A stretch of 64,000 nucleotides of DNA from positions 1-64,000 of the IMG/VR virus record IMGVR_UViG_3300020581_000010; one strand, 5' to 3'. How positions within the stretch are numbered: the stretch's first letter is position 1; each line of letters begins with the position of its first letter. The notes under the pieces are model-generated. The model made no database searches, was not told the origin of the DNA, and was given only the letters and a program-made list of their open reading frames with translations. This DNA is from a virus. Positions 14,186 through 47,036 of this stretch are shown in pieces. The position numbers and the translations under genes were made by a program.

Positions 14186-15736
14186 TTAGTTTCCAATCGT
14201 GGTCGGCAGCAACTGGTCCGCGTAGATGAACGCACCCGGATTCAGCGGTGCCCCATCGGCGGTCATGATCGCCCGCACGGCCGTCTGGTCGGCCTGGAAG
14301 ATCGCACCCTGGTTCGCCATTGCAAATTCGATGCTGCCGAACATGCCGATTCGCATGTTGCTCCACATCCCGCCGAAAAGCACTGTGAGGTTCGTGCCCG
14401 AAGACTTCACCCGGCCGTTCGGGACGTTGGAGCTGTTGACCACCTTGAAGCCGGCGAGGTAGTCGATCTGCTTCCCGTCCTCGAACCCGCGAGTCAGGTC
14501 GAACAGGAACAGACCGCCAGAGTCACCGACAGCGGCCACACCGGCACGCTTCGCCTGCATCGACCGGAGCAAGGTCGGGTAGATCAGCCAGCCCTCGAAC
14601 TTCGCGTTGGCGGCCTCAACGTTGCCAATCATGGTGTACGGGTCGCCGGGGGCGAGCGTGTAACCGTTCGTGGTCGTGGCCGAACCCGTGCCGTTGAACG
14701 ACTGGACGCCGGAGTAGCCGACGAGTCCCTGCGTGACGTTCTCGCTACCAGCACCGACCATCAGGTTCTGGTCGAACAGCAACGAGATCGAAATCATCAT
14801 GTCGTTGCGGAACAACTGCTCGACGATGGGTCCGCCGAAGCGGAGAAGCTCGTTGTTCGTGACGATGTACGCCCCGATCTTCTTGCCAGCGATTTCAATC
14901 TGGCCGGTGCCGACAGAGGACTGCGTGGTGTTCGCACCTTCGCCGACGTTGTAGGCGGTCGTCGGGGTCGTCTGCCGGGGGAACGTGATGCGGCCGGACG
15001 GAGGCAAGGGGAAGATCACCGCACCAGACGCGAGTACGGCCGAGTTGTTACGCAGCAAAGGGACCAGCGGCCCGAACTCAGGGAACGGCACCAAGGCACC
15101 GCCCAGGTTTTCTTGCAGGAAGCTCTGGGTCGAGCCGCCAACCTTTTGGGTGAAGCCCTGGTCGTTCCACTGCTGGTTCGTCTTCGTCACCAGAGCCGGA
15201 TTGACCAGTCCCTTCTGCACCATCCAAGAGGCGTATTCCGGGTCGTAGGCCGGCTGCGTGTCGAGCAGGCTCTTGACCTCGAAGGCCAGTTCCTTGTCGA
15301 TGCACGACAGGCGTGAGTCTTCCGAGTACAGGAAGTTCATCCCGAGCGGGCTGACGATGGTCTCTTTGTTGGTGTTGATCCCGTCCCGTTCGGTCGCCTC
15401 ACGCCAGCCGCCCTTGTGGTCGCGGAAGGATTTCTTGAGCCTGTCCGACATGTTGAATTCGAGCTGGGCGTCTTCGGGCCGGATGGCTCCATTTGCAAGG
15501 CCAGCCGCCTTGTGGAACATGTATCCACGGCTGCCCATCGTGTCTTCACCAGCACGGGCTGCCGGGGCCTGGTTCTGGCCGAGGATGCGGCTCTTTGCCG
15601 TGGCTACCGAGCCGCGTCCGGCGACCAGTTGCCTTTCTGGCAACGCCTCTCGCCGTGCGGCCGCGATTCGCTTGCGGGCCTTCTGCAAGAGGGCCAACTC
15701 TTCTTTGAGTGCCTGTGTCTTCGCGGTGATTGCCAT
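14186..15736 (-). CDS. major capsid protein, HK97 fold
   Basis: 516 residues. A 60-residue helical N-terminus (QALKEELALLQKARKRIAAA) resembles a delta/scaffolding segment removed by the prohead protease. The body shows the Phage_capsid pattern: an LGGALVPFPEFGPLVPLLR N-arm/E-loop region, VTNNELLRFGGPIVEQLFRND spine helix, then WLIYPTLLRSMQ and the C-terminal GSIEFAMANQGAIFQADQTAVRAIMTADG A-domain block. Length is larger than HK97 gp5 (385) mainly because of the N-terminal region. It lies downstream of the scaffold-like and protease genes. Confidence 0.88.
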   Translation of the reverse strand: MAITAKTQALKEELALLQKARKRIAAARREALPERQLVAGRGSVATAKSRILGQNQAPAARAGEDTMGSRGYMFHKAAGLANGAIRPEDAQLEFNMSDRLKKSFRDHKGGWREATERDGINTNKETIVSPLGMNFLYSEDSRLSCIDKELAFEVKSLLDTQPAYDPEYASWMVQKGLVNPALVTKTNQQWNDQGFTQKVGGSTQSFLQENLGGALVPFPEFGPLVPLLRNNSAVLASGAVIFPLPPSGRITFPRQTTPTTAYNVGEGANTTQSSVGTGQIEIAGKKIGAYIVTNNELLRFGGPIVEQLFRNDMMISISLLFDQNLMVGAGSENVTQGLVGYSGVQSFNGTGSATTTNGYTLAPGDPYTMIGNVEAANAKFEGWLIYPTLLRSMQAKRAGVAAVGDSGGLFLFDLTRGFEDGKQIDYLAGFKVVNSSNVPNGRVKSSGTNLTVLFGGMWSNMRIGMFGSIEFAMANQGAIFQADQTAVRAIMTADGAPLNPGAFIYADQLLPTTIGN

Positions 15737-15783: not shown

Positions 15784-16296
15784 TTATCGGGAAAGGCGTT
15801 CGATCTCTGCGAGTTCCCGCTGGATCGAACGACGCAATTGCTCTTCCGTGTCCGACCCGAGGCCGAGCGACTTCGCCGTCTCGGTCTCCATGTCCGTGCC
15901 GCCCTCGCCTGCTTCGTGTTCGTCGTCGAACGTCTCTTCCGTCTCGCCACCCTCCATGTCGTAGACCGGAAGGTCCTTGTAGGACTTGTGCTTGCCGTAG
16001 TTCTTCTCGTGGTGGGTGCGGAAGTGCGAGTCGAGCTTGTCCATGATGGACTTCGCGTCGTCGATGGGCTTCCGCATCGGCCCCTCGACGTGGTCGTGGG
16101 CACCGATCACGTCTTTCAGCCCGTGCAGTCCCGCCATGATCCGGTGAGCGGCTTTTGCCCCTTCGGGCATGCCTTCGAGCGGGTCTTCCTCGCCGGCGAT
16201 GTTCTCTTCGGTCTCTTCTTCGTGTGCGAGGTGTTCGGACCTGTCGGGGATGTCGCCGGGCTTGCGGGCGGGTTCGTCAACGACGTGTGCTGGCAT
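15784..16296 (-). CDS. acidic scaffold-like protein
   Basis: 170 residues, strongly acidic in the first 45 residues (EHLAHEEETEENIAGEEDP) and in the 110-150 region, with a charged C-terminal helix (EEQLRRSIQRELAEIERL). It lies directly before the capsid gene with GTGGAGAGCAAGTC as ribosome binding site. Composition and place fit a scaffolding or capsid-assembly protein. The capsid protein also carries a delta-like domain, so a separate scaffold is not certain. Confidence 0.5.
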   Translation of the reverse strand: MPAHVVDEPARKPGDIPDRSEHLAHEEETEENIAGEEDPLEGMPEGAKAAHRIMAGLHGLKDVIGAHDHVEGPMRKPIDDAKSIMDKLDSHFRTHHEKNYGKHKSYKDLPVYDMEGGETEETFDDEHEAGEGGTDMETETAKSLGLGSDTEEQLRRSIQRELAEIERLSR

Positions 16297-16374: not shown

Positions 16375-16707
16375 CTACTGAGAATTGACCTTGACCGCCC
16401 ACGGCCCGGAAGTGACGTGCCCCGAGTCGTCCATGAACTCCTCGCGGACCACGGCGACGGGGCGTCCCCTGTGGTCGGTCCAACGCCCCTCGCGGACGAA
16501 CTTCACCCCACCGTCAGCGTTGCCGAGTTCCGTGGTGGCTGACTTGGCACGCACTTCAGCGTCTGGGACAGTGCCGTCAAATTTGTCGTCGGCGACAATT
16601 TTGGCTGGCTCTTTCAGTGCCGCGAATGTATCGTCCGTCTGCTTGGTCCAGTCGGCGTTCTCGTCTGTAGCGTCAGGCGAAGGGAACTCACTTGTGGAAC
16701 TGCTCAT
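16375..16707 (-). CDS. small protein between the ART giant and capsid genes
   Basis: 110 residues starting MSSSTSEFPSPDATDENADW behind GGAGGGCCGACCT; the start lies within the end of the giant gene. The C-terminal part (VKFVREGRWTDHRGRPVAVVREEFMDDSGH) forms a compact beta-like module. No family recognised. Head morphogenesis cluster by position. Confidence 0.55.
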   Translation of the reverse strand: MSSSTSEFPSPDATDENADWTKQTDDTFAALKEPAKIVADDKFDGTVPDAEVRAKSATTELGNADGGVKFVREGRWTDHRGRPVAVVREEFMDDSGHVTSGPWAVKVNSQ

Positions 16708-19700
16708 AGGTCGGCCCTCCACTCTGTGATCCGGCAAAAGTGTTCGTGGCGAGATCAATCTTCGGTGCGATGTGAGTCCACGCTGCCGTGTTGCACTTGA
16801 TTTTTCCGCCGAGTACGACGCACTCGGCTTCGGTCAGGCACCCTGCCCCTGTTAAGGCTGTTGAGAACACTCTTTCGATTGGAACCCGCACGGCGATCAT
16901 CATGCAGTTTTTCTTGGAGTTGTTCCTTGAACTGTCCGCGAAATAATGGGCCGTGTCGAAACTCGTGCTGAATGACGACAGCGGTTGCAACGCTGTCTCA
17001 GCACCATCTTGCGATGTCCACTTCTCCTCAATCTTTCCGCCCTCAAGCTTCATGCCGCGATATAGGACTAGTTCCTTGATGCCTGCCTTCTTGAAAAACT
17101 CCTGCGTGTTCTCGTAAGTCGCTTCGAGATAAGCGTGGATGATGCCGCTGTACTTCTCACGCATCTCTTCCGTCTTGTCTTGCAACGCGATTTCCTTTTT
17201 GCTGCCGCTCGGCCCGACGTAATTGAAACTGTCCTTGACGTTGAAAAATTCCTTGGCTCCGCCTTGAATAGCACGCGACAAGGCATTGTGATCGTTGGAC
17301 GATTCCGCCCAGTTGTTGACGAGTACGGCGACGGCACCTTTGAGAGCGTCTTCTTCGTCTACCACGTCTTCCCAATGCTCCTCGTTGTACTCTTCGACAA
17401 GGGCTTCCGCTTCGGCCTCTACCGGAGTGCCAGCGTACTTTTTGCTGAGGATTTCAGCGATCTGCTGCGTCAGATTTGCTTTAGCGTGTGCTCTCATCCC
17501 ATGCGTTGCTTCAATGTTGCCCTTCGCGTCCACGGTGGATTCGTGGTCCCCTTCGTCTCTGGCGAATTTCTTGAACCACTCGCCCATGATCCGGTTCATC
17601 CCACCGTTAGACGATTGCTCTTTCAGTGATTGCAGGAAGGAAGCGTTCGTGTCGGGACTGCCTTCCGCCTTTTTTTTTTCGCTCGCCTCTTCCTTCTCCC
17701 CTCCCTTGCCTTGCTGCCGAGTCCAGATTTTGCCGCCCTTTGGGCCTTCGCCTGAGTAGGTCCAGCCTTCGCCGGGTGGAGTGGGGCCGTGGTACTCTTC
17801 GGCCTTGAGGGTGAAGCCGGCAGCTGATTTGTTGCTGGATTCGGTCCCGCGAAAAGCACCCTTATCTCTTTTCAGAATCCTAGCCGCGACAGAATCCTTG
17901 TCTCTCCAGTCCGAGACCCCGACATCTTTAGCCAGCTTCTCGCGTACACCCTTGGGTTGCGTGTCCAAGAGTTTGACAATCTGTGCATGCACGTCGGCGT
18001 CAGGCTCGCCCTTCTTCATGTCGTACTTGATGAAATCGTGCAGTGCCGTCCAAGTTTCCGGTAGCTTGCGAGGTGCGGGCGGTTGTTCGCGTTGTGGTGA
18101 AGGCTCAGGTTCCTTCTGTGCAATCTTGTTCCCGTGTTTGTCGTAGCCTTCTCCGAACGGATTGAATTCCTCTCGTTTGGTTCCGATGCCGTTTCTGCCC
18201 ATGAACTCGGCAGCAGCTTTACCGATAGACTCGGCGTTTGCCCCGCGTCCGATCATGACTGTCCCGTATGTGTTCTCTTTGTCGGACGGACTCATTTCCC
18301 GATGAACGTCCGACATGTTGCGGACTTCGTTCCACACCTTCAATTCGATTTGCTTCTGGTTAGCGAGAGAAATCAGGAGGCTTTTGAATTCCGTTGGCTT
18401 CATGTCGGGAGCAATCTTTCGCTTGAGTTCGGCATACAGATGGTCCGTCCTTGCCAGACCGTCACCGTGAACGTCTGACGCTGCGAATGCTCCGACTATT
18501 GATCGTCCTAAACTTTCGGCATCGTGAGGCTGGCCCTGTGATTGCTTTTTCTCGCCACTATGTTCGGCGGGTCCGCTTTCCGGCTCTCCCTGATGCTGCC
18601 AAATTTTGCCGCCTTTTGGGCCTTCACCCGTCTGCACCCATCCTTCGCCGGGCGGATTAGGCCCATGATACTCCGCTGCCTTCCACCCCTTCCGCACCTC
18701 GACAGGCTTCCGCGAGTCCATGCTGATCGTGCTGCCGTTCGACAAGTGCAGGATGATCGTGTTCTGCTTGCGTTCCCGCTGCGTCACCTTGGCGAACTCG
18801 CCCGTCTTCGGGTCTTTCACGTCGTTCCCCGCCCGCACGTTGTTGATGTGCGTGGACACCGGCCTCGGCTTCGGAGTCACTGAAGAAGTCTGCGGCAACG
18901 GCGGAACGGCTGTCGGTTCAGGCGTCTTCGCCGTGCCGGGCATGGCTGCTTGCTGCCTCTCGGCGACGGCCTTGTCCCGCTTGGCCTTGAGGGCTTTCTG
19001 CAAGAGGTCGCGGTTCAGGGAAGTGTTCGCCACCTGATTGCTGCCCCACGAGTGCGGGTTGCTCTCCCTCAGCGTCACGCCTAAACGCTTGGCGAACTGG
19101 TTGAACTCGCCGTGGCTCAGTCCTTCCGAACTCTTGACGATGCCGTCGATGTCATGGTCCGTCACCTGAGACGGTCGTGCCGCCAGCTTGTTCCGCAGTG
19201 CGTCCGCATGGTCAATGGCGAATGGCACAGGAGAGTCATTGCGTCTCAGCGGCGCCTTCTGCCAGTCGTGCCGCTGCCTCAAGTGTGGGTACTTGTTGAG
19301 GATCGCGTCGGGGACGGGGATGCCTTCCTTGACCGCCTCATACGCTGAAATTTTCTCGGCCTGAATGTCTATCTCACGCTGAGTCGGGGGATGGTCGTAG
19401 GTCGCTACCCTGACATTGCCACGCATAAGCACGTTAGGCTTGTCGGGGTTGACCGATAGGCCGATCTGATGCGGCGACTTGAGCCACGGTTTCACCGGCG
19501 GCGGGTGCTCCTGCTCGCGGGCCTGCTCCTCAGGTGTGCCGGTGGGAACCTGTCGTTCCCGCTCGTAGAGATTGGATTCGGGGTCTTGCGGTGGCTCTGG
19601 CAACGGCACGCGGGGTCCGCCGCCGCCGTACTTGGCAGCATTCGGGTGCGTGTGCAGCAACGCACGTGGGGCGGGTTCTCTCTCTGGTTCAGGCGTGCCT

Positions 19701-21406
19701 AGCGGCCTGTCCCCTGCTTCGCGTGCCCGCTCGTCTTCCTGACGCTGCCGCTGCTCTTGGAACTTCCTTTCGGCCTCCGGGTCTTCCTTGACGGGATTGA
19801 GTTCCAGCCGACGCCTGCCGAGTTCGTTGTTCACGATGTCGCGTGCGGTCAGGACGACGTTCTGGTCCTTATCGTTGCCGTACCACCCCTCGACGCCTAA
19901 CTCCCTGCCGGCCTTCTGGAGGGCGTCTCCCGACAGTCCCCTGAGAGCGGCTTGCACCTTGACCTGCAACTCGCGGATGGTGCCGCTTATCAGCCCTTCC
20001 TCCGTCCCCTTGTTAGCTGAGAGTATGCCCCGCACGTCCTCCGCGACGCCGGGGACGGTCTTGGTCGGTGCCGCTGGCTTCTCGCCTTGTGGTTGCCCGC
20101 TGTGCCGCCACAGCTTGCCGCCTCGCGGTCCCTCTCCAGCGAATTCCCATCCTTCGCCGGGGGATTCGGGCTGGTGCCTCACTTCGTCCTTGAGTGTGAA
20201 GGACTTCGCCGTGATACCTTCGCTCCCTTGCTCCCACTCCGCGAGCAAGTCCTTGACTAGCTGCTCGGCCAACTCGTTGATCTGTGCGTCCGTCAGTCGG
20301 TCGAATCCCTTGGTAGACATCGACTCGCGGGCACGCTTGTAGACTTCGGCGATCACGATGAACGGGACGGCCGTCAGTGCAGTTTGACCAGGCACCCATA
20401 CGGGCACGCCGAACGCTGCACCTACTCCGGTCACTCCCCACGACAGGATGTTAGCCGCCCCGAAGATTCCGAGAGCTTGGCGACGACCATAACGAGCCTC
20501 CAGCCTCTTGAACATGCCAGCCGATACTGACCGCATCTTGCGTCCTGCCGCACCGGCCGCACGCATGGTCTTCTTGCCGCCCTCGACTATCTTCGCGGCG
20601 ATGTCGTCCGCGTGGTGCATAGCGTTGCGGATGCGTGGAGAGCGGCGGATAGCTGACGCCATGCTCCACTGGTGCTTGCCGTTGCTCTTGGGTTGTTTGC
20701 CGGGGGACCAGATTTTCCCGCCGCGTGGTCCTTCGCTCACGAGGTGCCAGTTGTCGCCCGGCGGCTTGGGTCCGTGGTACTCGGCAGACTTCGCGGTGAA
20801 GGATTTTGCAGTCTTCCGCTGTCTCTTTACGGCAGTCCACTTGCCCCACTCGTTGTTCCACGCGAGTTGGAACTTACTCCCGTCGTCCGCCATCTCCTTG
20901 TTAGCGACCGCGATGTCTTCGGCAGTGTAGTCCCTGAATTCAGGGTCGTTGAATGTCTGGACATAGGATGCCGAGATGGTGTCACCTACCATCTTGCGGG
21001 CCTGCTCAAAGTATTCACGGTCGCCCATGTCGGGCTTTCCCGTCAGAGGGTTCGTGACCAGCACTGACCGTTCGCCGACGAGACTTCCGAGGTCTCGCAA
21101 GTGCATCGCGTTCCAGCCACCCTTGCCATCGGGAACAAGGCGGAATTTGCTGCCGTCGTCGCGGAGTTTCTGGTTCGCCTCGCGGGCGTCCTTAGCTGTT
21201 GCCATCGGGTTCTTGCGGAAGGATTCGACAGCAGCATTAACCGGATCATCTGCGGGTGGCTTTTTGAGCGTCGGCTCGCCGCCGGGGATAGAATCTGTCC
21301 GTTTCCAAATCTTGCCGCCCTTCGGTCCTTCCCCAGACAATACCCATCCCTCACCAGGCGGGGTCGGCCCGTGATACTCGGCAGCTTTTTCGATAGTTGC
21401 GAGCAC
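16688..21406 (-). CDS. 1572-residue repeat protein with C-terminal ADP-ribosyltransferase
   Basis: Five copies of a 25-residue motif (E-Y-H-G-P-x-P-P-G-E-G-W ... G-E-G-P-(K/R)-G-G-K-(I/L)-W) start near residues 10, 209, 408, 912 and 1204 and divide the protein into five modules. Between them: two related DDGSKF modules (60-105, 155-195), a hydrophobic segment (310-360), Pro/Glu-rich linkers (540-650), and winged-helix-like segments (965-1070). Residues about 1410-1560 form an R-S-E class mono-ADP-ribosyltransferase: LVLYRG (Arg1450), SSFSTS (STS at 1480-1482) and LTEAECVVL (Glu1526, Glu1528, the ExE catalytic turn). GTG start two bases after the protease stop. A location between protease and capsid suggests packaging into the head and injection, as with T4 Alt. 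Family of the repeat not recognised. Confidence 0.82.
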   Translation of the reverse strand: MLATIEKAAEYHGPTPPGEGWVLSGEGPKGGKIWKRTDSIPGGEPTLKKPPADDPVNAAVESFRKNPMATAKDAREANQKLRDDGSKFRLVPDGKGGWNAMHLRDLGSLVGERSVLVTNPLTGKPDMGDREYFEQARKMVGDTISASYVQTFNDPEFRDYTAEDIAVANKEMADDGSKFQLAWNNEWGKWTAVKRQRKTAKSFTAKSAEYHGPKPPGDNWHLVSEGPRGGKIWSPGKQPKSNGKHQWSMASAIRRSPRIRNAMHHADDIAAKIVEGGKKTMRAAGAAGRKMRSVSAGMFKRLEARYGRRQALGIFGAANILSWGVTGVGAAFGVPVWVPGQTALTAVPFIVIAEVYKRARESMSTKGFDRLTDAQINELAEQLVKDLLAEWEQGSEGITAKSFTLKDEVRHQPESPGEGWEFAGEGPRGGKLWRHSGQPQGEKPAAPTKTVPGVAEDVRGILSANKGTEEGLISGTIRELQVKVQAALRGLSGDALQKAGRELGVEGWYGNDKDQNVVLTARDIVNNELGRRRLELNPVKEDPEAERKFQEQRQRQEDERAREAGDRPLGTPEPEREPAPRALLHTHPNAAKYGGGGPRVPLPEPPQDPESNLYERERQVPTGTPEEQAREQEHPPPVKPWLKSPHQIGLSVNPDKPNVLMRGNVRVATYDHPPTQREIDIQAEKISAYEAVKEGIPVPDAILNKYPHLRQRHDWQKAPLRRNDSPVPFAIDHADALRNKLAARPSQVTDHDIDGIVKSSEGLSHGEFNQFAKRLGVTLRESNPHSWGSNQVANTSLNRDLLQKALKAKRDKAVAERQQAAMPGTAKTPEPTAVPPLPQTSSVTPKPRPVSTHINNVRAGNDVKDPKTGEFAKVTQRERKQNTIILHLSNGSTISMDSRKPVEVRKGWKAAEYHGPNPPGEGWVQTGEGPKGGKIWQHQGEPESGPAEHSGEKKQSQGQPHDAESLGRSIVGAFAASDVHGDGLARTDHLYAELKRKIAPDMKPTEFKSLLISLANQKQIELKVWNEVRNMSDVHREMSPSDKENTYGTVMIGRGANAESIGKAAAEFMGRNGIGTKREEFNPFGEGYDKHGNKIAQKEPEPSPQREQPPAPRKLPETWTALHDFIKYDMKKGEPDADVHAQIVKLLDTQPKGVREKLAKDVGVSDWRDKDSVAARILKRDKGAFRGTESSNKSAAGFTLKAEEYHGPTPPGEGWTYSGEGPKGGKIWTRQQGKGGEKEEASEKKKAEGSPDTNASFLQSLKEQSSNGGMNRIMGEWFKKFARDEGDHESTVDAKGNIEATHGMRAHAKANLTQQIAEILSKKYAGTPVEAEAEALVEEYNEEHWEDVVDEEDALKGAVAVLVNNWAESSNDHNALSRAIQGGAKEFFNVKDSFNYVGPSGSKKEIALQDKTEEMREKYSGIIHAYLEATYENTQEFFKKAGIKELVLYRGMKLEGGKIEEKWTSQDGAETALQPLSSFSTSFDTAHYFADSSRNNSKKNCMMIAVRVPIERVFSTALTGAGCLTEAECVVLGGKIKCNTAAWTHIAPKIDLATNTFAGSQSGGPTYEQFHK
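17723..21379 (-). repeat. five EYHGP...GEGPKGGKIW motif repeats in the giant gene
   Basis: Copies at about 21305-21379, 20708-20782, 20108-20185, 18599-18673 and 17723-17797. Invariant or nearly so: Gly-Pro-(K/R)-Gly-Gly-Lys-(I/L)-Trp, preceded by P-G-(E/D)-x-W. Copies 2, 3 and 5 are preceded by a Lys-Ser/Phe-Thr stretch (AKSFTAK, AKSFTLK, GFTLK). The regular placement at domain borders suggests processing sites, packaging tags or small folded linkers. Confidence 0.8.
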
Positions 21407-21407
21407 G

Positions 21408-23036
21408 TTACACCGTCAGACTGGATTCAGCTTCGGTGAGAAAATCCGCCGCCTTCGCCGTGATTGCTTCGTGTACCTTCCCCTTGCCGTCGTCACGTAC
21501 CACGTCACCCTCTTTGTTACCGTGGTTCACCCCGCAACCCGCGAGCGTTGACCTTGCCCACACGTAGAGCCGGTGCTGGCGGTAGGGGGTAACGAGCGTC
21601 TGCCGTCCGTCGTCCGCGACGTGCAGGAAGTGGTGGTGTTTCTTCTCGGCGTCGGTCAGTTCCAACGCCCCTTCAAGTGCGACCGTCGCGGGTTTCTGCT
21701 CCTTGCTGGTGATGGACTTCTCTTGCTTGGGAAGTTCCGCGATGTTGGCGGTCAGCGGGTAGGTGAGGACTTCGTTGCCGTCCCACTTCGCGGGCTTCGT
21801 CTTGTCCCACGGGTAGGGGAACGAGAACTTGCCGGCAGCGGTCTGGATGTCCAAGACCCCAGCTTTCTTGTCGCGGCTGACGACTTGGATTTCCTGCGGC
21901 TGGAGGGACGTGTTGCCGCCCATCCACAGTTGCAAATTGTCGTAGTCCCAGTTCTCGCGGGGTCGGACAACGAGAACCACCTTGTCTCCGAAGTGTCCGC
22001 AATACTCGGCCTGCATGTCGTCCGGCAGTCCGTCAATGGAGAACTGTCCCGCGATGTTCACTTGGGGGATGCTGTTGCGTGGGACGCCGTTGCGGGCACG
22101 CGGCATGTCTCCGGAGGGGCCGGCAGCTCCCATGCTGCGGTCGAGGGAGTCGCGTGCGAGGTCGATGGTGCGGTTCGGGTTCGATGGTTCCATTGGGATG
22201 CTCTTTTGGGTGATACCTGGGACTGAGACGGATACGGGGCGGTTCAGGTGGTAGCCGAGCTGCTCGAAGGACTTTCGGATCACGGGGTCGAGCGGGTCGC
22301 CCTCAAGTTTCTTGCGGCCCAGCAGAGTCAGCACGGCGTCAGGGTTCATGCCTGCCGGAACCCACGATCCCTCGACCATCGCACATCGCTCGATGAACCG
22401 GCCCGGCTTCGGCAGCCCGGCGTCCGGTTCGGGCGGCAGCTTGCGGACGATCAAGTCCTTGAAGGCGATGCTGTTCGCCCTGAGTACGCGGGCCTTGACC
22501 AGCGAGTAGCACTGCACGGCGAACGCGGTCTTGTTGTGGAAAAAAGTCTTCTGCGTGATGACCTGGGAATCGACATCCTTCCAGACGCAGTACTTGCCGT
22601 CCGGCGATTCGCTGACCCCCACTGGGAACGGGGACCACTTGCCGTGGTCGTACAGGATGATCGGGTTACTCTGATGTTCGGTGGTGACGACCCCGCCAAC
22701 GTCTACCACGTCGCCCACCCAATCGCGGCGGTTCGTGCAGAGGATGCCGATGGCGGACATCTCCCCGTCGTCGGTGGACACGTCCATGAGGTCGCTGTTG
22801 AGGCTGACCAGCCCGTCTACTTCCGACTCTTCGGAGGTGTTGTAGAGCTTGTAGGTGTAGGCCTTGACCGACTGAACGTCGTGGCACCCGCAGGCCGACT
22901 TGGCGGTGACGGAGGCGAGTCCCCATAACTGGTTGCACAGGGCTGTGCGGTCCTCTGCCGACAGTCCAGCGAGTTCAGGATGCAATTGGCACCTCGACAA
23001 AAACTGGTGCGGAGTCTCATCGGGCAATCGCTGCAT
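21408..23036 (-). CDS. prohead protease (S78/U35-like) with long C-terminal extension
   Basis: 542 residues. Residues 100-215 carry the HK97 prohead protease pattern: DWVGDVVDVGGV, NPIILYDHGKWSPFPVG (catalytic His in LYDH) and VLRANSIAFKDLIVRKLP (the Ser in the position of the VSIGF/VSI motif). Typical proteases are about 200-230 residues, so over 300 residues follow, including RPRENWDYDNLQLWMGG and a His-rich KKHHHFLH segment whose role is unknown. CAGCGGAGGCGAC precedes the ATG. It is immediately upstream of the giant ART gene and may process it as well as the capsid protein. Confidence 0.75.
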   Translation of the reverse strand: MQRLPDETPHQFLSRCQLHPELAGLSAEDRTALCNQLWGLASVTAKSACGCHDVQSVKAYTYKLYNTSEESEVDGLVSLNSDLMDVSTDDGEMSAIGILCTNRRDWVGDVVDVGGVVTTEHQSNPIILYDHGKWSPFPVGVSESPDGKYCVWKDVDSQVITQKTFFHNKTAFAVQCYSLVKARVLRANSIAFKDLIVRKLPPEPDAGLPKPGRFIERCAMVEGSWVPAGMNPDAVLTLLGRKKLEGDPLDPVIRKSFEQLGYHLNRPVSVSVPGITQKSIPMEPSNPNRTIDLARDSLDRSMGAAGPSGDMPRARNGVPRNSIPQVNIAGQFSIDGLPDDMQAEYCGHFGDKVVLVVRPRENWDYDNLQLWMGGNTSLQPQEIQVVSRDKKAGVLDIQTAAGKFSFPYPWDKTKPAKWDGNEVLTYPLTANIAELPKQEKSITSKEQKPATVALEGALELTDAEKKHHHFLHVADDGRQTLVTPYRQHRLYVWARSTLAGCGVNHGNKEGDVVRDDGKGKVHEAITAKAADFLTEAESSLTV

Positions 23037-26652: not shown

Positions 26653-26897
26653 TTGGCTTCGATTTGATCCTTCACGTCTTTGTCGATCATGGTCTTCAAT
26701 CTCTCTTCGTGTTCTTTGTGCCCCTCTTTTTCTTTTTCGGAATACGGCCCGTGAGCCTCATCGTATTCCTTGACCTTGTCGTCGATGAACTTCTTGCAGT
26801 CCTTGCAAAACGCTAAGTGGTCGGCAAATGTCAGCCTCTCTGCGGACGACATTTCTTCCGGCCATCGCAAATTCGATCGGAACTCTTCGCATGTCAT
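26649..26897 (-). CDS. zf-HC2-like small protein, MTC family copy 1
   Basis: 82 residues. MTCEEFRSNL at the start and HLAFCKDCKKFI (H-x3-C-x2-C) resemble the zinc-binding anti-sigma domain zf-HC2. The C-terminal half is a highly charged helix. It overlaps the portal stop (ATGA) and converges on the HTH gene. A related protein is encoded at 56594-56842. Confidence 0.55.
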   Translation of the reverse strand: MTCEEFRSNLRWPEEMSSAERLTFADHLAFCKDCKKFIDDKVKEYDEAHGPYSEKEKEGHKEHEERLKTMIDKDVKDQIEAN

Positions 26898-28498
26898 TTT
26901 CCGTTTGCCGTTGCCGACACCCTCCCATTCGCATGGACTTCTTTTGCACGCCCACGCCTCTTGAGAATTTCCAGCACTTCCTCAATTGTCTCGCCATCGG
27001 TCCAAGCCTTCTTGGTGTGGCTTTTCAATCCGAGATCGGCAGGTCCAACTTGTGCCGCTTCCTTGTCACCTTGGCCAAGTGCTGCCGTCATCGGGTCGGA
27101 CGGCACCATTGCCCCACCGCCCGTGCCCGGTTGCTGGCCGGTTCCGCCGATCCATTCCTTGTCCCTGTCCGACGGCTTCAGCCCGACAAGCTGTCTGAAT
27201 TCGCCGACCGTAATTACGCCCGGTTTCGACGCTGCCGCGTTCGCTCGTTCGAGATCGAACTTCTCATCGCTCGGCTTCTTGCCGTGCAAGTGCAGATGAA
27301 CGTCTTCGCTGTACCACGGATGAATCAGACCGACTGTCAACGCACTTGCGAACTTCGCCAACATTGGGTCTAAGCTGCTGTAATGGAAGCTCATGATCGA
27401 AGCGTGGTCGGTCGCAAAGTTGTCGTGGCCAGAAAGGCCGGCAATCGCTTTGTTCAGGCCGAATGCCGCGAGCGTGAATTCTAACAACTGATCCCAAGAT
27501 TTTTCCCAGCCCATTTCTGCCGGGCTGTTCGTGAACGGGGTCAGTTTGCTGAACGGCGGGGCGACGAACGGGATTCCAGAATTCTCTGCCCCACCGTAGA
27601 TGTTGACCAACTGCTCCCTCAGCCTCTCCATGTCCTTCGCCGATGGCTGAAACGCCAAACTGTCGAAACTCAACATAAACCGCTGTTTCAGCCCCTGCTT
27701 CATCTCGTTCGCCCGGCTCAAATCCATCTGCCTCACCACGTCCGTCTGTGCAGCAATCGCAAAGAGGCAGGCATATCCCGTCCACCGGAAGAACGGGTGA
27801 GGGTCTTTGACCATCACGATCTGCTCGGCGGGGACCACCGTCCCGACCCCCTGCTGGACTGGAATCTGTGCGTATGGTCCTGCGGGTAGCCACGGCTGCA
27901 CCAGCCATGCCCCGTTAGGCCACAGGGGGCTGATGGGCTGCGGGATCAACGACGCAGTGGAGAGGACGTAGGCTTCCTGCGGGCGGTCCCATTCGATGTC
28001 CAGTTCCCAAGGCGTCCAGATGGGGGCCATGCCAGTGAGGCACTTCTGCAAGTTTCCCTGTTCAAGGATGTCAGCCAGCGTTTCCTTGGGGTTCGGATGG
28101 CTGAGGAATTCGACCACCTCGTCCTTGGGGTAGACGGGGATTCGCCTGTCGGGTTCTCGCGGGTCCAATTCGTAGAACTCGGCCTCAGCCTGGTAGAAAT
28201 GGCGGTTCAGCGTGTTGATGGCCAAGAACACTTGAGAGAAGTACTGCCGGCTGAGCTGGAACCAATTCTGATCGGCGTAGCCTGGGGCGTTGACCCTCTG
28301 GGCAGACCAGAAGAATCGGTAGGCATCGAACGTGCTGAGGACGTTCTGGCTGCCATAGTCGGCGATGTCCGTGAGCGGCTGGACGCGATTCGGTGGGCCG
28401 GTGTCCCTCCACCGTCGCCACCACGCCGAGCTGTTGCTGGACATGCTCGGAGCTGCGAGCGATTGGGCTTTCTGGTTAGCGGAGCAAGTGTAGGGCAT
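26894..28498 (-). CDS. portal protein
   Basis: 534 residues. The order fits HK97-type portals: wing region with NRHFYQAEAEFYELDP, FLSHPNPKETLADILEQG, a VPAEQIVMVKDPHPFFRWTGYACL block, then LSRANEMKQGLKQRFML clip/stem region and FTNSPAEMGWEKSWDQLLEFTLAAFGL, which is the typical LaQ..GVP.h-type late motif. The C-terminal 100 residues are hydrophilic. It is separated from the capsid cluster by the early region, an unusual arrangement. Confidence 0.78.
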   Translation of the reverse strand: MPYTCSANQKAQSLAAPSMSSNSSAWWRRWRDTGPPNRVQPLTDIADYGSQNVLSTFDAYRFFWSAQRVNAPGYADQNWFQLSRQYFSQVFLAINTLNRHFYQAEAEFYELDPREPDRRIPVYPKDEVVEFLSHPNPKETLADILEQGNLQKCLTGMAPIWTPWELDIEWDRPQEAYVLSTASLIPQPISPLWPNGAWLVQPWLPAGPYAQIPVQQGVGTVVPAEQIVMVKDPHPFFRWTGYACLFAIAAQTDVVRQMDLSRANEMKQGLKQRFMLSFDSLAFQPSAKDMERLREQLVNIYGGAENSGIPFVAPPFSKLTPFTNSPAEMGWEKSWDQLLEFTLAAFGLNKAIAGLSGHDNFATDHASIMSFHYSSLDPMLAKFASALTVGLIHPWYSEDVHLHLHGKKPSDEKFDLERANAAASKPGVITVGEFRQLVGLKPSDRDKEWIGGTGQQPGTGGGAMVPSDPMTAALGQGDKEAAQVGPADLGLKSHTKKAWTDGETIEEVLEILKRRGRAKEVHANGRVSATANGK

Positions 28499-30262: not shown

Positions 30263-30871
30263 ATGAGCGAGCGAACAGAGAAGGGGACATTCGCGGCCGG
30301 CAACAAGGGCGGACCCGGCAGGCCACGCAAGAAGGACGACGAACGCAAGAGGTACATCGAAGCCTTCCGCGAGACCGTCACCGTAGACGACTGGATCGCC
30401 ATCGTCCAGCAAGCCGTGACCCACGCCAAGAGCGACGACGCCAAGGAAGCCCACCAAGCCCGCGAGTGGCTGGCGAACTACCTCATCGGCAAAGACCCGT
30501 TCACCGTGATCGACCTCGCCGAGAAGATCGAAGGACTCGAAGAGGTGATCGCCAGCATCCAGAACAAGCCAATAGGTGCAAATGGACAGGCGGAATTTCC
30601 TGACAGTGACGACGGGGGCGATAACCCTCCACCAGCTGGGCCAGAGGGCCCAGGGCCTGTACCAGTGGCTCCCGCAACCGGCGAACCCGGTGGTCGAGCA
30701 AATCCGCCAGAGGCCCGAAGCGGTGATGACGCTGGCAGGGATGAAACCGGACCCGTGGCAGGTGAACCTGCTCCGCTCCAAGGCCGAGACGGTGTACGCC
30801 AACACGACACGCCAAGGCGGGAAAAGCCTGGTAGCTGGGGCGGTCGCCCTCCAGGTGGCATTGACTTCTGA
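30263..30871 (+). CDS. small terminase subunit, putative
   Basis: 202 residues. FAAGNKGGPGRPRKKDDERKR is the basic opening seen in many small terminases, followed by a helical domain (IEAFRETVTVDDWIAIVQQAV, EAHQAREWLANYLIGKDP). From residue 105 to the end it is a Pro/Gly-rich low-complexity tail that is read in a different phase from the large terminase start. The overlap with the ATPase gene is about 290 bases, far more than normal. Confidence 0.62.
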   Translation: MSERTEKGTFAAGNKGGPGRPRKKDDERKRYIEAFRETVTVDDWIAIVQQAVTHAKSDDAKEAHQAREWLANYLIGKDPFTVIDLAEKIEGLEEVIASIQNKPIGANGQAEFPDSDDGGDNPPPAGPEGPGPVPVAPATGEPGGRANPPEARSGDDAGRDETGPVAGEPAPLQGRDGVRQHDTPRREKPGSWGGRPPGGIDF

Positions 30872-31451
30872 CGGCTCAACAACGCTCATCGTCAGCCCCT
30901 CGGAACGCCAGTCAATCGAACTGCTCCAAGAGAAGATTCTCCCTCTCTACCGCAAGCTGGGCCGACCCCTGGGTCTCCTCCGCGACAGCCAGACCTCCGT
31001 GCGGTTCGGCAACGGCTCACGCATCGTGGCCCTGCCCGGCAAGGAAGAGACCATCCGGTCCTTCTCGGCCGTTTCCTTGCTCATCCTTGACGAAGCCGCA
31101 CGCATACCGGACCCGCTGTTCTACTCAGTCGGTGCGTTCCTCGCGGTGAGTCACGGGCGGATGCTGGCGATGTCCACCCCTTTCGGGCAGCGGGGATGGT
31201 TCTACGAGGAGTGGAGGGGGGCAGGTGCGTACGAGCGGTTCGAGGTTCCGGCGTCGATGTGCCCACGCATCCCCGCGAAGTTCCTTGAGGAAGAGCGTAG
31301 GAAGATGGGGCCGCGATGGTTCGCTCAGGAGTACGGCAATTCCTTTGAGGCAGCGACGGGCAGTGTGTTCAACCCCGAAGACGTGGACGCCATGTTCGAC
31401 TTGGACGACCTGCCTGAAGGCGTGAGCCCTGAACAACTCGCCGGGGTGTAG
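30582..31451 (+). CDS. large terminase, ATPase half
   Basis: About 289 residues. PDPWQ is the Q-motif, NTTRQGGKS the Walker A loop (Lys near 81), SLLILDEAARI Walker B (Asp170/Glu171), and LAMSTPFGQRGWFYEEW the coupling motif. The protein stops at 31451 right after the ATPase domain. The ATG at 30582 has AGG five bases upstream; ATG at 30726 (MTLAGMKPDPWQ) would also keep all motifs and shorten the overlap with the small terminase. The nuclease domain is the next gene. Confidence 0.82.
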   Translation: MDRRNFLTVTTGAITLHQLGQRAQGLYQWLPQPANPVVEQIRQRPEAVMTLAGMKPDPWQVNLLRSKAETVYANTTRQGGKSLVAGAVALQVALTSDGSTTLIVSPSERQSIELLQEKILPLYRKLGRPLGLLRDSQTSVRFGNGSRIVALPGKEETIRSFSAVSLLILDEAARIPDPLFYSVGAFLAVSHGRMLAMSTPFGQRGWFYEEWRGAGAYERFEVPASMCPRIPAKFLEEERRKMGPRWFAQEYGNSFEAATGSVFNPEDVDAMFDLDDLPEGVSPEQLAGV

Positions 31452-31453
31452 CC

Positions 31454-32389
31454 GTGGAGTGGATCGTCAGCATCGACCTGGGGAAGATCAACGACTACAC
31501 CGCGTTCATCTGTGCGAGGAAGGCCGAGACGAACCCGCCTATCTACCTTGTCGAACACATCGAGCGGTTTGAAATTGGTCTGCCCACACTCTACCCCTCA
31601 GTCGTTCGTCGCATGAGGAAGGTACTCGGCAGCGAGAAGATGGAGGGAGCGAGGTTCATCGCGGACGGCACCGGCGTAGGCATGGCCGTGGTGGACATGT
31701 TCCGCGAGCACCAAGAGACACGCGGCGTCATCCCCATCAGTATCACTTGCGGCAAGCATGCTACTTGGAACCAAGAGGGCAACGCCTGGCATGTCCCAAA
31801 GCTGGAACTCATCTCCGTGATGCAATCGCTACTGCCGAGCAAGCGAGTGAAGATCAACGACGGCTCTGGTAGGACTGACAAGGCACACCCTGACGTGGAC
31901 CTCGGCCCGGTGCTGGCAAAGGAGATGAAGAGCTTTGACTGGACCCGCAAGCACAAGACCGACGACAGCCAAATGACTCTGGAGTTGTGGCGAGAAAAGA
32001 CGAACGATGACACCGTCCTCGCACTGGCCATGCTCCTGTGGTACGGCGAACGCGGCCGTGGCATCAACTACAACCTCGAACTAATTGGCGAGCGAATAGC
32101 CGCTGCGACCGACGAAGTGGTCAAGTACCCGTTCATCCGATTCTTCCGGCCCCACAAGACGTTCCAGCCCGTGCCAAAGGTCAACGGCCAGGAAGTACTC
32201 GGATGCCTTGGATACGACACCCAAGAGGAGGCGTTGCTGTTCTCCCTCGAACTGCTCAAGAGGGCAGGGGAACGGGTGAAGTTTGAGGCACCTGAGGACG
32301 TGCGGGAACTGGACGAACGGAAAAGGGCGAAGGTACTGGAGGACGTGGTCAGGATGATGGGGCAGAGGGGGATTGCGGTGAGGCGTTAG
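31454..32389 (+). CDS. large terminase, nuclease half (separate gene)
   Basis: 311 residues. RNase H-like nuclease: VSIDLGKINDYTAF (first Asp), ARFIADGTGVG (second acidic residue) and NDDTVLALAMLLW (third, with the typical D.vdALAla helix). Begins with GTG two bases after the ATPase stop, in the -1 phase relative to it. No slippery heptamer is present in the 19-base region where both phases are open, so two polypeptides are expected. An 80-residue C-terminal extension (PFIRFFRPHKTFQPV onward) is unassigned. Confidence 0.82.
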   Translation: MEWIVSIDLGKINDYTAFICARKAETNPPIYLVEHIERFEIGLPTLYPSVVRRMRKVLGSEKMEGARFIADGTGVGMAVVDMFREHQETRGVIPISITCGKHATWNQEGNAWHVPKLELISVMQSLLPSKRVKINDGSGRTDKAHPDVDLGPVLAKEMKSFDWTRKHKTDDSQMTLELWREKTNDDTVLALAMLLWYGERGRGINYNLELIGERIAAATDEVVKYPFIRFFRPHKTFQPVPKVNGQEVLGCLGYDTQEEALLFSLELLKRAGERVKFEAPEDVRELDERKRAKVLEDVVRMMGQRGIAVRR

Positions 32390-36361: not shown

Positions 36362-38383
36362 TCACCCCTTCGGCTTCCGCCACACCCAGCAATCTCCCCT
36401 GACCGCCGCTGGCGTATCCCTGAACGTCCCGTCCACCGCCTCCACCACACCGGGGAACGCTGCCGTGTAGTCGTGCCCCGCAAGGATGCCGCCCGGCTTC
36501 ACCTTCGGAAGCCACGCCTGGATGTCCTGCACGACAGACTGGTAGTCGTGCGATGCGTCGATGAACACGAAGTCCAGGCAGTTGTCGAGGATAGCCCCGG
36601 CAACGTCCGCACTCTTCCCTTCCTTGACCTGCACCAGCTTTGACACCCCGGCCCGGCGTAGGTTCTCGTCGAACGCCTGACGCAATGTCTTGCCCCCGAG
36701 CTTGCTGATGATCTCCCGGTGGACCTGCTCATCCGATCCCTGGAAGTGGTCCACGGCATACAGGAACCAGTGCTGTTTTGGGTACTGCTGCGTGGCCCTG
36801 GCGAGTACGGTGATTCCCTGGCCAAGCAGACTGCCCACCTCGACCAGCGACCCGCCACCGCTGACGGCCAAGTCCCTGACTACCTCGTGGTACAGCTCCC
36901 GCATGGGCTTGGTGCAGTAGCCGAACGGTTCCCAAAAGGGGTCGGGCTTAGCATACGGTTCGACGATTGCCCGTTGTGATTCGGTCAGGTGGTGCTTCTC
37001 GCCTGTCGATTCTAACGGCTCTCGTGATGGTAGCCCGAGATGATTCGGCCTCGACTGCTCTGGAACATTCTGGCTTTTCTTCATCGCTTCAACGGCGGTG
37101 AGTCTTTCCCACACGGTGACACCGCCATTGATAGCCCTTGTCTCGTATTTCTTCGGAACCGGAAACAGCACGTCCGGTATGCTCTCAATCGTGAAATGGT
37201 TCGTGAAAACGGCATTGATGCGGGATTCCTCAGCCGACTTGTGGAAGCATCCGACGCCGTTCCTTGTGAACCACACCGGAGCATCCACCTTCACCCATTC
37301 GGCACGCTCGAAGGACGCTGCGATCCGGTTCGCCGCCGGCCTCAGTGCCTCCGTGGCCTCAGCAATGGCCGCTGTGCCCTTGCTGGCCACTGACGCCGCA
37401 ACGTCCTGCATCGTGTCGAACGTCGCCTCTGCTGGCGGTCCTGCCGCGACTCCGCACCCTTGCGTGAGGGATTCGGCCAAATCCGTAAGTCCCGGAATGT
37501 GAATCCTTTCCGGTTTCAAATCGGACGCTGCGTCCGTTTTGGCCACCCCATTCTTCGCCGTCCGCTCCTTCTCCTCTCGCATCCTCAGAATCGAGTACAT
37601 CTTCTCCCTGAACGTGTCCACCTGAGAGGGGTGCAGTATCTTCGGCTGAGTGATCTCCCCCACCTTGAAGTGGCTCGACCAGTTGTCGAAGTCGGCGAAG
37701 ATGTGGACGTTCGCCGCCCTCATCTGCTGGTGGCAGAAGATGTCCTCGCTGGCCTTCATGATCGTGTGTGCATCGTCTGCCCACATGAACTCGTAGTACG
37801 GCTTCTTGATCAGCGAGAATGCCCGCATGTCGTAGGCTATGCACCCCGGCCCGACGTTCTCCACCTCGACCAGCCCCCTCTCTGCCGCCGCTTCCTCGCG
37901 GGTGTAGCGGGACATCTGGAAGCCGCTGTTCTCGTAGTTGTTCTTGTTGGTGCGGTATCGGAACACCAGCGGGTCTTCCTTCTCTCCCCCGGTGCAGTAG
38001 GGGGAAGCGATCACGATGGGGGGCCTGCCCTTCTGCAAGTTCAGCCAGATTTCCTTGACCGCCTCGTCGAACCACCGCGTGACCGGACCCATGTCGTCGT
38101 CGAGCATCACCAGCACGTCCGCCCCCCGCTGCTGGGCTTCGTCCACGGCGATGTTCCGGGCTGCCGAGTGCGGGACCACGTTGCCGAACACGGCGATGCT
38201 CGTGACCAGTCCCTTGATGCCAGCGAGGCACGGACCACCAGCTAGGGCGATTGCACCCATGCTCTGGACGTGGGCCTGGAAGCCGACCAGCTCTTGGCGG
38301 ACCATGCCGCTAGCCGTGATGATCGCACTAAGGACTTTGAACGGCCTTGGTGGCGTCTCGCTCTGACTCTGTTGCGGCTGCAC
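36362..38383 (-). CDS. GT-A glycosyltransferase fused to class I methyltransferase
   Basis: 673 residues, GTG start behind GGAGGAACACC. Residues 60-260: SAARNIAVDEAQ, DVLVMLDDDMGPV, ASPYCTGG, MKASEDIFCHQQM and FDNWSSHF form a GT-A domain related to the protein at 33802. A linker (270-460) with HIPGLTDL-type sequence follows. Residues 500-670: SLVEVGSLLGQGITVLA (motif I), YAVDHFQGSDEQ, FVFIDASHDYQSVVQDI and KPGGILAGHDYTAAFPGV, a Methyltransf_24 domain. The fused enzyme would add and methylate a sugar on one acceptor, a common way of capping glycans. Confidence 0.78.
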   Translation of the reverse strand: MQPQQSQSETPPRPFKVLSAIITASGMVRQELVGFQAHVQSMGAIALAGGPCLAGIKGLVTSIAVFGNVVPHSAARNIAVDEAQQRGADVLVMLDDDMGPVTRWFDEAVKEIWLNLQKGRPPIVIASPYCTGGEKEDPLVFRYRTNKNNYENSGFQMSRYTREEAAAERGLVEVENVGPGCIAYDMRAFSLIKKPYYEFMWADDAHTIMKASEDIFCHQQMRAANVHIFADFDNWSSHFKVGEITQPKILHPSQVDTFREKMYSILRMREEKERTAKNGVAKTDAASDLKPERIHIPGLTDLAESLTQGCGVAAGPPAEATFDTMQDVAASVASKGTAAIAEATEALRPAANRIAASFERAEWVKVDAPVWFTRNGVGCFHKSAEESRINAVFTNHFTIESIPDVLFPVPKKYETRAINGGVTVWERLTAVEAMKKSQNVPEQSRPNHLGLPSREPLESTGEKHHLTESQRAIVEPYAKPDPFWEPFGYCTKPMRELYHEVVRDLAVSGGGSLVEVGSLLGQGITVLARATQQYPKQHWFLYAVDHFQGSDEQVHREIISKLGGKTLRQAFDENLRRAGVSKLVQVKEGKSADVAGAILDNCLDFVFIDASHDYQSVVQDIQAWLPKVKPGGILAGHDYTAAFPGVVEAVDGTFRDTPAAVRGDCWVWRKPKG

Positions 38384-45938: not shown

Positions 45939-47036
45939 TCATTCCCCGGAACCTTCATCAAACAAACCATGCTCAATTGGTGCCGCAACCGTCTCATCGG
46001 CTTCCGACCAGCCACGCGGATACACCTTATCTTCCCAGCACTTCCTGATGAATGCTTCGTCCTCCGGCGTCACCAGGACAATGCCTGCCCGACGCTGAAT
46101 GTCCATGATGCGGTCGAACATTCTTTTGCGGGCTTCAAGTTTGATCGGCCCGTAGCCGTCTTTTTTGCCTTTGCCCTTAGCCTGCCCAGAGCGGAAGCAG
46201 CGATTGATTCGGCGGCGGGACTCAAACCAAACGTCGTAAAGCTCGTTCAGCGGAGATTCCTTGCCGTATCGCTTTGAGACCGCTTTCGGGGCGTGTGCTT
46301 TAGATTGGATCGCCGGGCAACCGATGCAACCGAACCTTGCTGCCGTCACGACAGGATCAGACCATTCAAAAACGTCCTTGTCTACCTGCACATCGTAGAT
46401 GTCAGCGAGCCTCTTGGTGATTGCGAAAACATCCTGCATCTTGTCGGCCACGATGGGCCTGACGTGCCCGCAGAGCCAGTCAATGACGTGACAGGTCCGC
46501 CAGTGCAGAATCGGGCTGTAAGTGCGATCCGACGGATCAGGTATGCCGCATTCTCCCCCTGCCGAGCAGCCCTTGCGTTTGATCTTGCCGTCACGCATTG
46601 CCGACTCGCCGAGCCTCAAGCCAGTCAGAGTCACCCCTATCGAATTCTTCTCTCGCCACCGCTCCATCGGGTCGATCTTCGTCGCCCGCGTACACCACCG
46701 CATTGATCGGACGCCTGGGTGTATCGGAGAGACGCCGATGCCCAAAATGCGGTTGTACAGCTTCTCATTGATTCGCGGCTCAACAACAGCACAATCCCAC
46801 CCGCACGTTCGCAACAGGACCATCATGTCGCGGGAGATTGCCTGCAACTGGGGATATTCGACGGTAGTGTCCGACTGGACAAGCTGTGGCCGTTCGACGG
46901 TAATCCATCCGGTTCGTCGCATCCATTCAATCCACGTCACAAGCGAAGTCGAATCCTTGCCGCCGCTGAACGAGGCACACCACGGACCTTGCAAGCGTTC
47001 GAGGTGCTCAGCTGTCGGTTCATAGAATGATGCCAT
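45939..47036 (-). CDS. DndC/CysH-like PP-loop enzyme
   Basis: 365 residues. ASFSGGKDSTSL is the PP-loop ATP-pyrophosphatase motif. MRWCTRATKIDP, GLRLGESAMRDG, KGCSAGGECG, YSPILHW and FGCIGCPAIQSK follow, with Cys residues placed to bind an iron-sulfur cluster as in DndC (DNA phosphorothioation) and PAPS reductases. In phages such proteins are usually called PAPS reductase-like. The GLR-GES and CxxC pattern favours the DndC side. No DndA, B, D or E is nearby. A sulfur or nucleoside modification of DNA or RNA is possible. Confidence 0.72.
   Translation of the reverse strand: MASFYEPTAEHLERLQGPWCASFSGGKDSTSLVTWIEWMRRTGWITVERPQLVQSDTTVEYPQLQAISRDMMVLLRTCGWDCAVVEPRINEKLYNRILGIGVSPIHPGVRSMRWCTRATKIDPMERWREKNSIGVTLTGLRLGESAMRDGKIKRKGCSAGGECGIPDPSDRTYSPILHWRTCHVIDWLCGHVRPIVADKMQDVFAITKRLADIYDVQVDKDVFEWSDPVVTAARFGCIGCPAIQSKAHAPKAVSKRYGKESPLNELYDVWFESRRRINRCFRSGQAKGKGKKDGYGPIKLEARKRMFDRIMDIQRRAGIVLVTPEDEAFIRKCWEDKVYPRGWSEADETVAAPIEHGLFDEGSGE

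What the first reader, a model, noticed from the sequence alone, without database searches (positions are those of the whole stretch)
16688..21406. Giant repeat protein with a C-terminal ADP-ribosyltransferase: candidate head-borne, processed effector
Seen: 1572 residues, five copies of an EYHGP..PGEGW..GEGPKGGKIW motif at domain borders, and a complete R-S-E ADP-ribosyltransferase triad (Arg1450, STS 1480-1482, ExE 1526-1528). The gene lies between prohead protease and capsid. Known: phage ADP-ribosyltransferases such as T4 Alt are packaged and injected. Inference: the motif marks processing or packaging sites, so one gene would deliver several effectors. I do not recognise the repeat from any described system.
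Basis: partly seen in the sequence, partly recalled or inferred. Interest (0 to 1): 0.9.

Follow-up and report, generated by a model that had tools for sequence, protein, structure and literature searches.

The report
Tag-bordered multi-cargo phage head protein
A virus of bacteria carries, among its head genes, one giant protein made of five different pieces, each introduced by the same small tag and ending in a predicted host-modifying enzyme; it probably rides in the virus head into the next cell, possibly cut into separate proteins first.

Summary
In detail: 16688-21406 (minus strand) encodes 1572 residues with five copies of a ~25-residue motif. The C-terminus is an ADP-ribosyltransferase (ART): Arg1450, Glu1526 and Glu1528 are invariant in seven relatives; the conserved serine is Ser1478, not 1480.

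The ART family is fused to the MuF minor-head domain beside the portal in three other phages, which supports head-borne delivery. The motif is predicted to be a three-stranded mini-sheet. In exact-pattern scans it occurs in only three other virus contigs, always on proteins at the portal/MuF genes, and a shortened form starts neighbouring amine oxidases. It therefore behaves as a cargo tag, not as a cleavage site.

New here: TAKS is the only four-letter word present in protease, giant protein, 170-aa protein and capsid (0 occurrences in 19,812 other residues). HK97 cuts K/S. K-S sites precede three of four internal motif copies by 3-11 residues. I therefore propose an effector polyprotein cut by the prohead protease, each fragment starting with its tag. 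A fourth phage has the same layout with an unrelated tag and several ARTs.

Polyvalent head proteins are known; tag-bordered, trans-cleaved ones appear new. Virion presence, cleavage and activity are untested.

The parts
16688..21406 (-). Giant multi-cargo protein gene, 1572 aa, five motif-headed units
21305..21379 (-). Motif copy 1 (residues 10-34)
20708..20782 (-). Motif copy 2 (residues 209-233)
20108..20182 (-). Motif copy 3, diverged (residues 409-433)
18599..18673 (-). Motif copy 4 (residues 912-936); no K-S pair upstream
17723..17797 (-). Motif copy 5 (residues 1204-1228), heads the ART unit
20801..20812 (-). Candidate protease site TAK/S, residues 199-202, before motif 2
   Evidence: inference by analogy with HK97 K103/S104 (PMC10275583)
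20786..20797 (-). Candidate protease site TAK/S, residues 204-207, directly before motif 2
   Evidence: inference
20201..20212 (-). Candidate protease site TAK/S, residues 399-402, before motif 3
   Evidence: inference
17825..17833 (-). Candidate protease site NK/S, residues 1192-1194, before motif 5
   Evidence: inference
16772..17374 (-). ART domain, about residues 1345-1545 (R1450, S1478, E1526, E1528)
20348..20449 (-). Two hydrophobic segments (residues 320-353) in unit 2; unit resembles the one after the motif in the L011 portal fusion
21408..23036 (-). Predicted prohead protease, 542 aa; TAKS at 44, TSKE at 443, TAKA at 526
15784..16296 (-). 170-aa acidic protein of the head cluster, TAKS at 140
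14186..15736 (-). Major capsid protein (HK97 fold from residue ~211), TAKT at 4 and TAKS at 46 in the N-terminal region
26894..28498 (-). Portal protein

Best explanation
The gene encodes a polyvalent head-cargo protein: five unrelated cargo units in one chain, each introduced by the same small folded tag (motif). The tags (inferred) help load the chain into the prohead through contact with portal, scaffold or capsid interior. During maturation the prohead protease cuts at TAK/S-type sites just upstream of most tags, the same sites it would use in itself, the 170-aa protein and the capsid. This yields tagged fragments of about 1-206, 207-401, 402-1193 and 1194-1572 (roughly 23, 21, 87 and 42 kDa). 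The fragments leave with the DNA, and the C-terminal one, an R-S-ExE ART related to DRAT, modifies a host protein early in infection, probably on arginine. Shown by sequence: the ORF, the five tags and their conservation, the ART family and its MuF fusions, the tag on portal/MuF-locus proteins elsewhere, and TAKS confined to head genes. Inferred: loading, cutting, injection, target. My separate odds: ART enzyme 0.9; carried in the virion 0.75; tag as a loading element 0.5; cut by the prohead protease at these sites 0.5.
For: ART relatives found in six virus contigs. In L025, L029 and L030 the ART is C-terminal to Phage_Mu_F, next to a portal gene. Motif HG..PPG.GW.....GP.GGK.W in three other contigs: a MuF protein directly after a portal gene (L008), the protein directly after a portal gene and before a MuF gene (L010), and the extended C-terminus of a portal fused to a 2H phosphoesterase (L011). 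A short form of the motif begins amine oxidases directly after the MuF genes in L008 and L010. One cargo stretch (residues 1109-1185) is shared with L008 at 39%, E 7e-11. Motif predicted as a 3-stranded mini-sheet, core pLDDT 86-89. TAKS is the only 4-mer in all four head-cluster proteins; a 4-mer shared by all four appears in 3 of 3000 shuffles; TAKS 5 times (6 with the 170-aa ORF) in head ORFs against 0 in 19,812 aa elsewhere. K-S pairs lie within 10 residues upstream of three of four internal motifs, p=0.0005 for random placement. HK97 protease cuts K103/S104 (PMC10275583). Parallel design with an unrelated tag in G005: terminase-portal-then nine tag copies heading several ARTs.
Against: No virion proteomics. 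Motif copy 4 has no K-S upstream (GWKAAEYHGP). The TAKS pattern was chosen after looking at the sequences. The protease assignment is weak by profile. The capsid's TAKS at 46 lies ~150 residues before the HK97 fold, so it cannot be the final maturation cut there. No close relative of this phage was found in which to test conservation of the sites. The three motif-bearing relatives show no TAKS before their motif.
Confidence: 0.45

Rival explanations
1. Head-borne polyvalent effector that stays in one piece: the motif is a folded spacer or docking knob between cargo domains, and TAKS is an unrelated head-protein interaction word or a chance word.
For: Known precedents are packaged uncut, e.g. 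N4 virion RNAP (PMC5512222). The motif is a folded mini-sheet. Copy 4 lacks a K-S site. Relatives with the motif lack TAKS before it.
Against: TAKS restricted to head genes and placed before 3 of 4 internal motifs. A tag at or near the N-terminus of single-cargo genes elsewhere fits separable units.
Confidence: 0.35
2. The protein is a scaffold or core component of the prohead (or a protease substrate that is degraded), and the ART only joins assembly or is released inside the producing cell.
For: Position between protease and capsid; candidate protease sites; acidic and proline-rich linkers.
Against: The ART keeps its full catalytic set across seven homologues, which scaffolding alone would not require; the same ART family is on MuF minor-head proteins.
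Confidence: 0.12
3. Not a virion protein: a late-expressed polymorphic-toxin-like protein acting in the infected cell or against competitors, with interchangeable C-terminal toxins.
For: MuF polymorphic toxins of temperate phages end in varied toxins (PMC5576092, title and abstract only).
Against: No immunity gene recognised downstream; cargo units lie all along the chain rather than only at the C-terminus; gene order is that of head assembly.
Confidence: 0.08

Closest known systems
Polyvalent proteins of phages and conjugative elements (PMC5512222)
   Same: Large multidomain proteins encoded with head genes, ARTs among the commonest domains, proposed to be packaged and injected, sometimes processed by peptidases
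   Different: Processing there is assigned to metallopeptidase or assemblin-like domains in the same protein; here the candidate protease is the separate prohead protease, and a repeated tag borders every unit
MuF-ART minor head proteins (PMC9503650; L025, L029, L030 here)
   Same: Same ART family, same gene neighbourhood (portal/head)
   Different: No MuF domain found in the window protein; tag units instead
T4 Alt and internal proteins with a capsid-targeting sequence cleaved by gp21 (PMC7411985)
   Same: ART carried in the head and injected; N-terminal targeting stretch removed by the prohead protease
   Different: T4 tag is a short removed propeptide, one per protein; here the tag would stay on the fragment and is present five times in one chain; no detected sequence match to Alt
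SPN3US jumbo-phage ejection proteins (PMC10052503)
   Same: Head proteins cut several times by one prohead protease at a shared word
   Different: There the cuts remove propeptides; no multi-effector chain
DRAT, dinitrogenase reductase ADP-ribosyltransferase (PF07357)
   Same: Remote profile match over the catalytic half (E 1e-4, below the curated cut-off) in 4 of 7 members
   Different: Phage head context, extra helical domain, no nitrogenase link

Membership tests
R-S-E ADP-ribosyltransferase superfamily | Conserved Arg, Ser and Glu (ExE) in the right order | tested here: met
   R1450, S1478, E1526, E1528 invariant in 7 sequences
R-S-E ADP-ribosyltransferase superfamily | ART fold | tested here: inconclusive
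   Model pTM 0.69, helical bundle then beta-sandwich; best PDB matches are almost all PARP catalytic domains but E 0.03-0.5, prob <=0.5
R-S-E ADP-ribosyltransferase superfamily | NAD-dependent transferase activity | not testable with these tools
   needs biochemistry
DRAT (PF07357) | Score above the curated cut-off | tested here: not met
   22.0 bits against 25; related, not filed as a member
MuF minor head proteins | Phage_Mu_F domain | tested here: not met
   No Phage_Mu_F in the window protein, although its ART relatives have it
Polyvalent proteins | Several unrelated effector-type domains in one chain, encoded with virion genes | tested here: met
   Five dissimilar units, ART, hydrophobic unit, shared cargo stretch with a MuF protein; head-gene neighbourhood. 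Only the ART has an assigned activity
Polyvalent proteins | Packaged in the virion and injected | not testable with these tools
   needs virion mass spectrometry
Prohead-protease substrates | Shares a cut-site word with protease and capsid of the same phage | tested here: met
   TAKS in all four head-cluster proteins, none elsewhere; actual cutting untested
WW or other known small domains | Match to a Pfam model or solved fold | tested here: not met
   0 Pfam families at E<=10 for ten motif sequences; PDB fold matches E>=5

The most novel reading that the evidence does not exclude
Phages use dedicated small tag domains to make head-delivered effector polyproteins: each tag heads one cargo, and the prohead protease separates the cargos inside the head. 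At least two unrelated tags serve this (HG..PPG.GW..GP.GGK.W here and KGG.GSG..GH.GRPG.RGGS in G005/G006), so tags could be used to read off a phage's injected arsenal.
Probability: 0.3. Interest if true: 0.82.

Novelty: new variant of a known kind. Interest (0 to 1): 0.62.

Why it matters
Which proteins a phage carries in its head and injects is usually unknown without proteomics. A tag that borders each cargo would allow prediction from sequence, would reveal unknown effectors (units 1-4 match no family), and would give a modular handle for loading foreign proteins into phage heads. A prohead protease that also releases effectors would link capsid maturation to arming the virion.

Tried and rejected
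Whole-protein and portal searches of IMG/VR found no relatives. The profile search with the five window copies found none because it asked for EGP. L007, L009, L012 and the four genome hits L013-L016 are chance: antisense or short spurious frames, or an unrelated protein. A looser scan gave 88 stretches, none a new motif member by profile. No convincing motif match in cultured phages or plasmids; low-complexity masking may hide some. I considered a WW-domain identity by eye; Pfam and fold search gave nothing. The five units as tandem duplicates of one domain: rejected. Motif as the cleavage site itself: disfavoured, since it is a folded element that also occurs unrepeated. Tag 2 in ~600 Bacillota and Actinomycetota genomes: none. 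No PDB relatives of ART, protease or terminase by sequence.

Full report
WHAT IS THERE. The window is bases 1-64000 of a 75,252-bp virus record. ORF 16688-21406 on the minus strand encodes 1572 aa and begins one base after the stop of a 542-aa ORF. Gene order, all on the minus strand: portal (26894-28498), predicted prohead protease (21408-23036), giant protein, 127-aa and 170-aa ORFs, capsid (14186-15736), head-tail adaptor, and later the tape measure protein. The protease is recognised only weakly (phrog_80 E 0.0026). A weak collinear alignment to a protease-like head-cluster ORF (L030:4036-5016, identified by eye) runs GDVV...DHG...PVGV...SIAF.

THE MOTIF. Five copies lie at residues 10-34, 209-233, 409-433, 912-936 and 1204-1228, and nowhere else in the record. 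Copies 1 and 5 agree at 23 of 25 residues, yet 15 of the shared residues use different codons, so selection acts on the protein sequence. The stretches between are not repeats of each other. An alignment of ten copies gives a predicted three-stranded mini-sheet with core pLDDT 86-89. It matches no Pfam model and no solved fold.

WHERE ELSE THE MOTIF OCCURS. Exact-pattern scans of 2.9 million virus contigs found it in three further contigs, all at portal/MuF loci. In L008 it lies near the N-terminus of a MuF protein directly after the portal. In L010 it lies near the N-terminus of the protein between portal and an intein-bearing MuF. In L011 it lies in a portal extended by a hydrophobic unit and a 2H phosphoesterase. 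In L008 and L010 the next gene, a flavin amine oxidase, starts with a shortened motif (HYGSEPPTGSGWTASGPGRW, HFGSESPGIGWTQAGEGRW). Scans of 85,000 bacterial and archaeal genomes gave only chance frames. A looser viral scan added none. So the motif is a rare, mobile border or header element of virion-locus proteins. It occurs once on single-cargo proteins and five times here.

THE C-TERMINAL ENZYME. Pfam gives a sub-threshold DRAT match (E 1e-4). The same match appears in 4 of 7 family members. Relatives are phage SP-15 and five IMG/VR contigs. Invariant residues include Arg1450-Gly, Ser1478, Glu1526, Glu1528 and a signature YE.TQE. The model is a helical bundle plus beta-sandwich; its best PDB matches are mostly PARP catalytic domains but not significant. 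In L025, L029 and L030 the ART is fused to Phage_Mu_F next to a portal gene. MuF-ART fusions are held to be head-packaged (PMC9503650). This is the strongest evidence that the window protein is head-borne.

CANDIDATE CUT SITES. TAKS occurs in the protease (44), the giant protein (199, 204, 399), the 170-aa protein (140) and the capsid (46). It is the only 4-mer common to all four; 3 of 3000 shuffles give any such word. Over mechanically chosen ORFs of the whole record it occurs 5 times in 2,630 head residues (6 with the 170-aa protein, which that ORF choice displaced) and 0 times in 19,812 others. TAK followed by S, A or T occurs 8 against 1. K-S pairs lie within 10 residues before internal motifs 2, 3 and 5 (TAKS, TAKS, NKS); p = 0.0005 against random motif positions. 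Motif 4 has none. HK97, whose capsid fold this phage shares, is cut at K103/S104 (PMC10275583). These are post-hoc patterns, but they converge. Cutting there would leave each released piece beginning with its tag, as in the one-cargo proteins of other phages.

A PARALLEL CASE. G005 (L027, L120), found through the ART, runs terminase-like ORF (by eye), portal, then four ORFs with nine copies of an unrelated tag, KGG.GSG..GH.GRPG.RGGS. These tags head DRAT-like ARTs, an ART-PolyVal domain and other units. Its 1623-aa ORF crosses ambiguous bases and may be two genes. In G006 three neighbouring ORFs begin with that tag, one of them with a second copy before a second ART. The same design with another tag argues that tag-plus-cargo is a recurring unit.

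MECHANISM AND STATUS. Shown: ORF, tags, ART residues, family contexts, word distribution. Inferred: tag loads cargo into the prohead; prohead protease separates cargos; pieces are injected; ART modifies a host protein. Polyvalent head proteins, MuF-ARTs and multiply cut ejection proteins are known (PMC5512222, PMC9503650, PMC10052503). I found no description of a tag-bordered effector chain cut by the prohead protease, within the literature I could search.

Noticed in passing
L027, L120 (G005) and L028 (G006): Arrays of a second, unrelated tag (KGG.GSG..GH.GRPG.RGGS), 9 and 4 copies, heading ART and other cargo ORFs, in G005 directly behind the portal.
   Followed up: partly
L008:3541-5469, L010:8960-10321: Flavin amine oxidase gene directly after the MuF gene in two phages, each starting with a shortened form of the motif; a possible head-carried oxidase.
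   Followed up: partly
L010:6597-8969: Intein-splicing domain inserted in the MuF minor head protein.
   Followed up: no
window 30576-32389 (+): Terminase large subunit appears split in two abutting ORFs (ATPase match 30576-31451, then 31454-32389), on the opposite strand to the head genes.
   Followed up: no
window residues ~69-101 and ~162-194 of the giant protein: Unit 1 seems to hold an internal duplication (TA.D...AN....DDGSKF.L......G.W.A); seen by eye, not tested.
   Followed up: no
window 45939-47036 (-) and 36362-38383 (-): PAPS-reductase-like protein (E 2e-4) and a 673-aa protein with a C-terminal methyltransferase; possible DNA or base modification genes.
   Followed up: no
L010 4159-6132 residues ~285-310, L011 7588-11121 residues ~915-935: Another shared short element (GG.GW....TGEIRYQ) in two of the motif-bearing proteins.
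   Followed up: no
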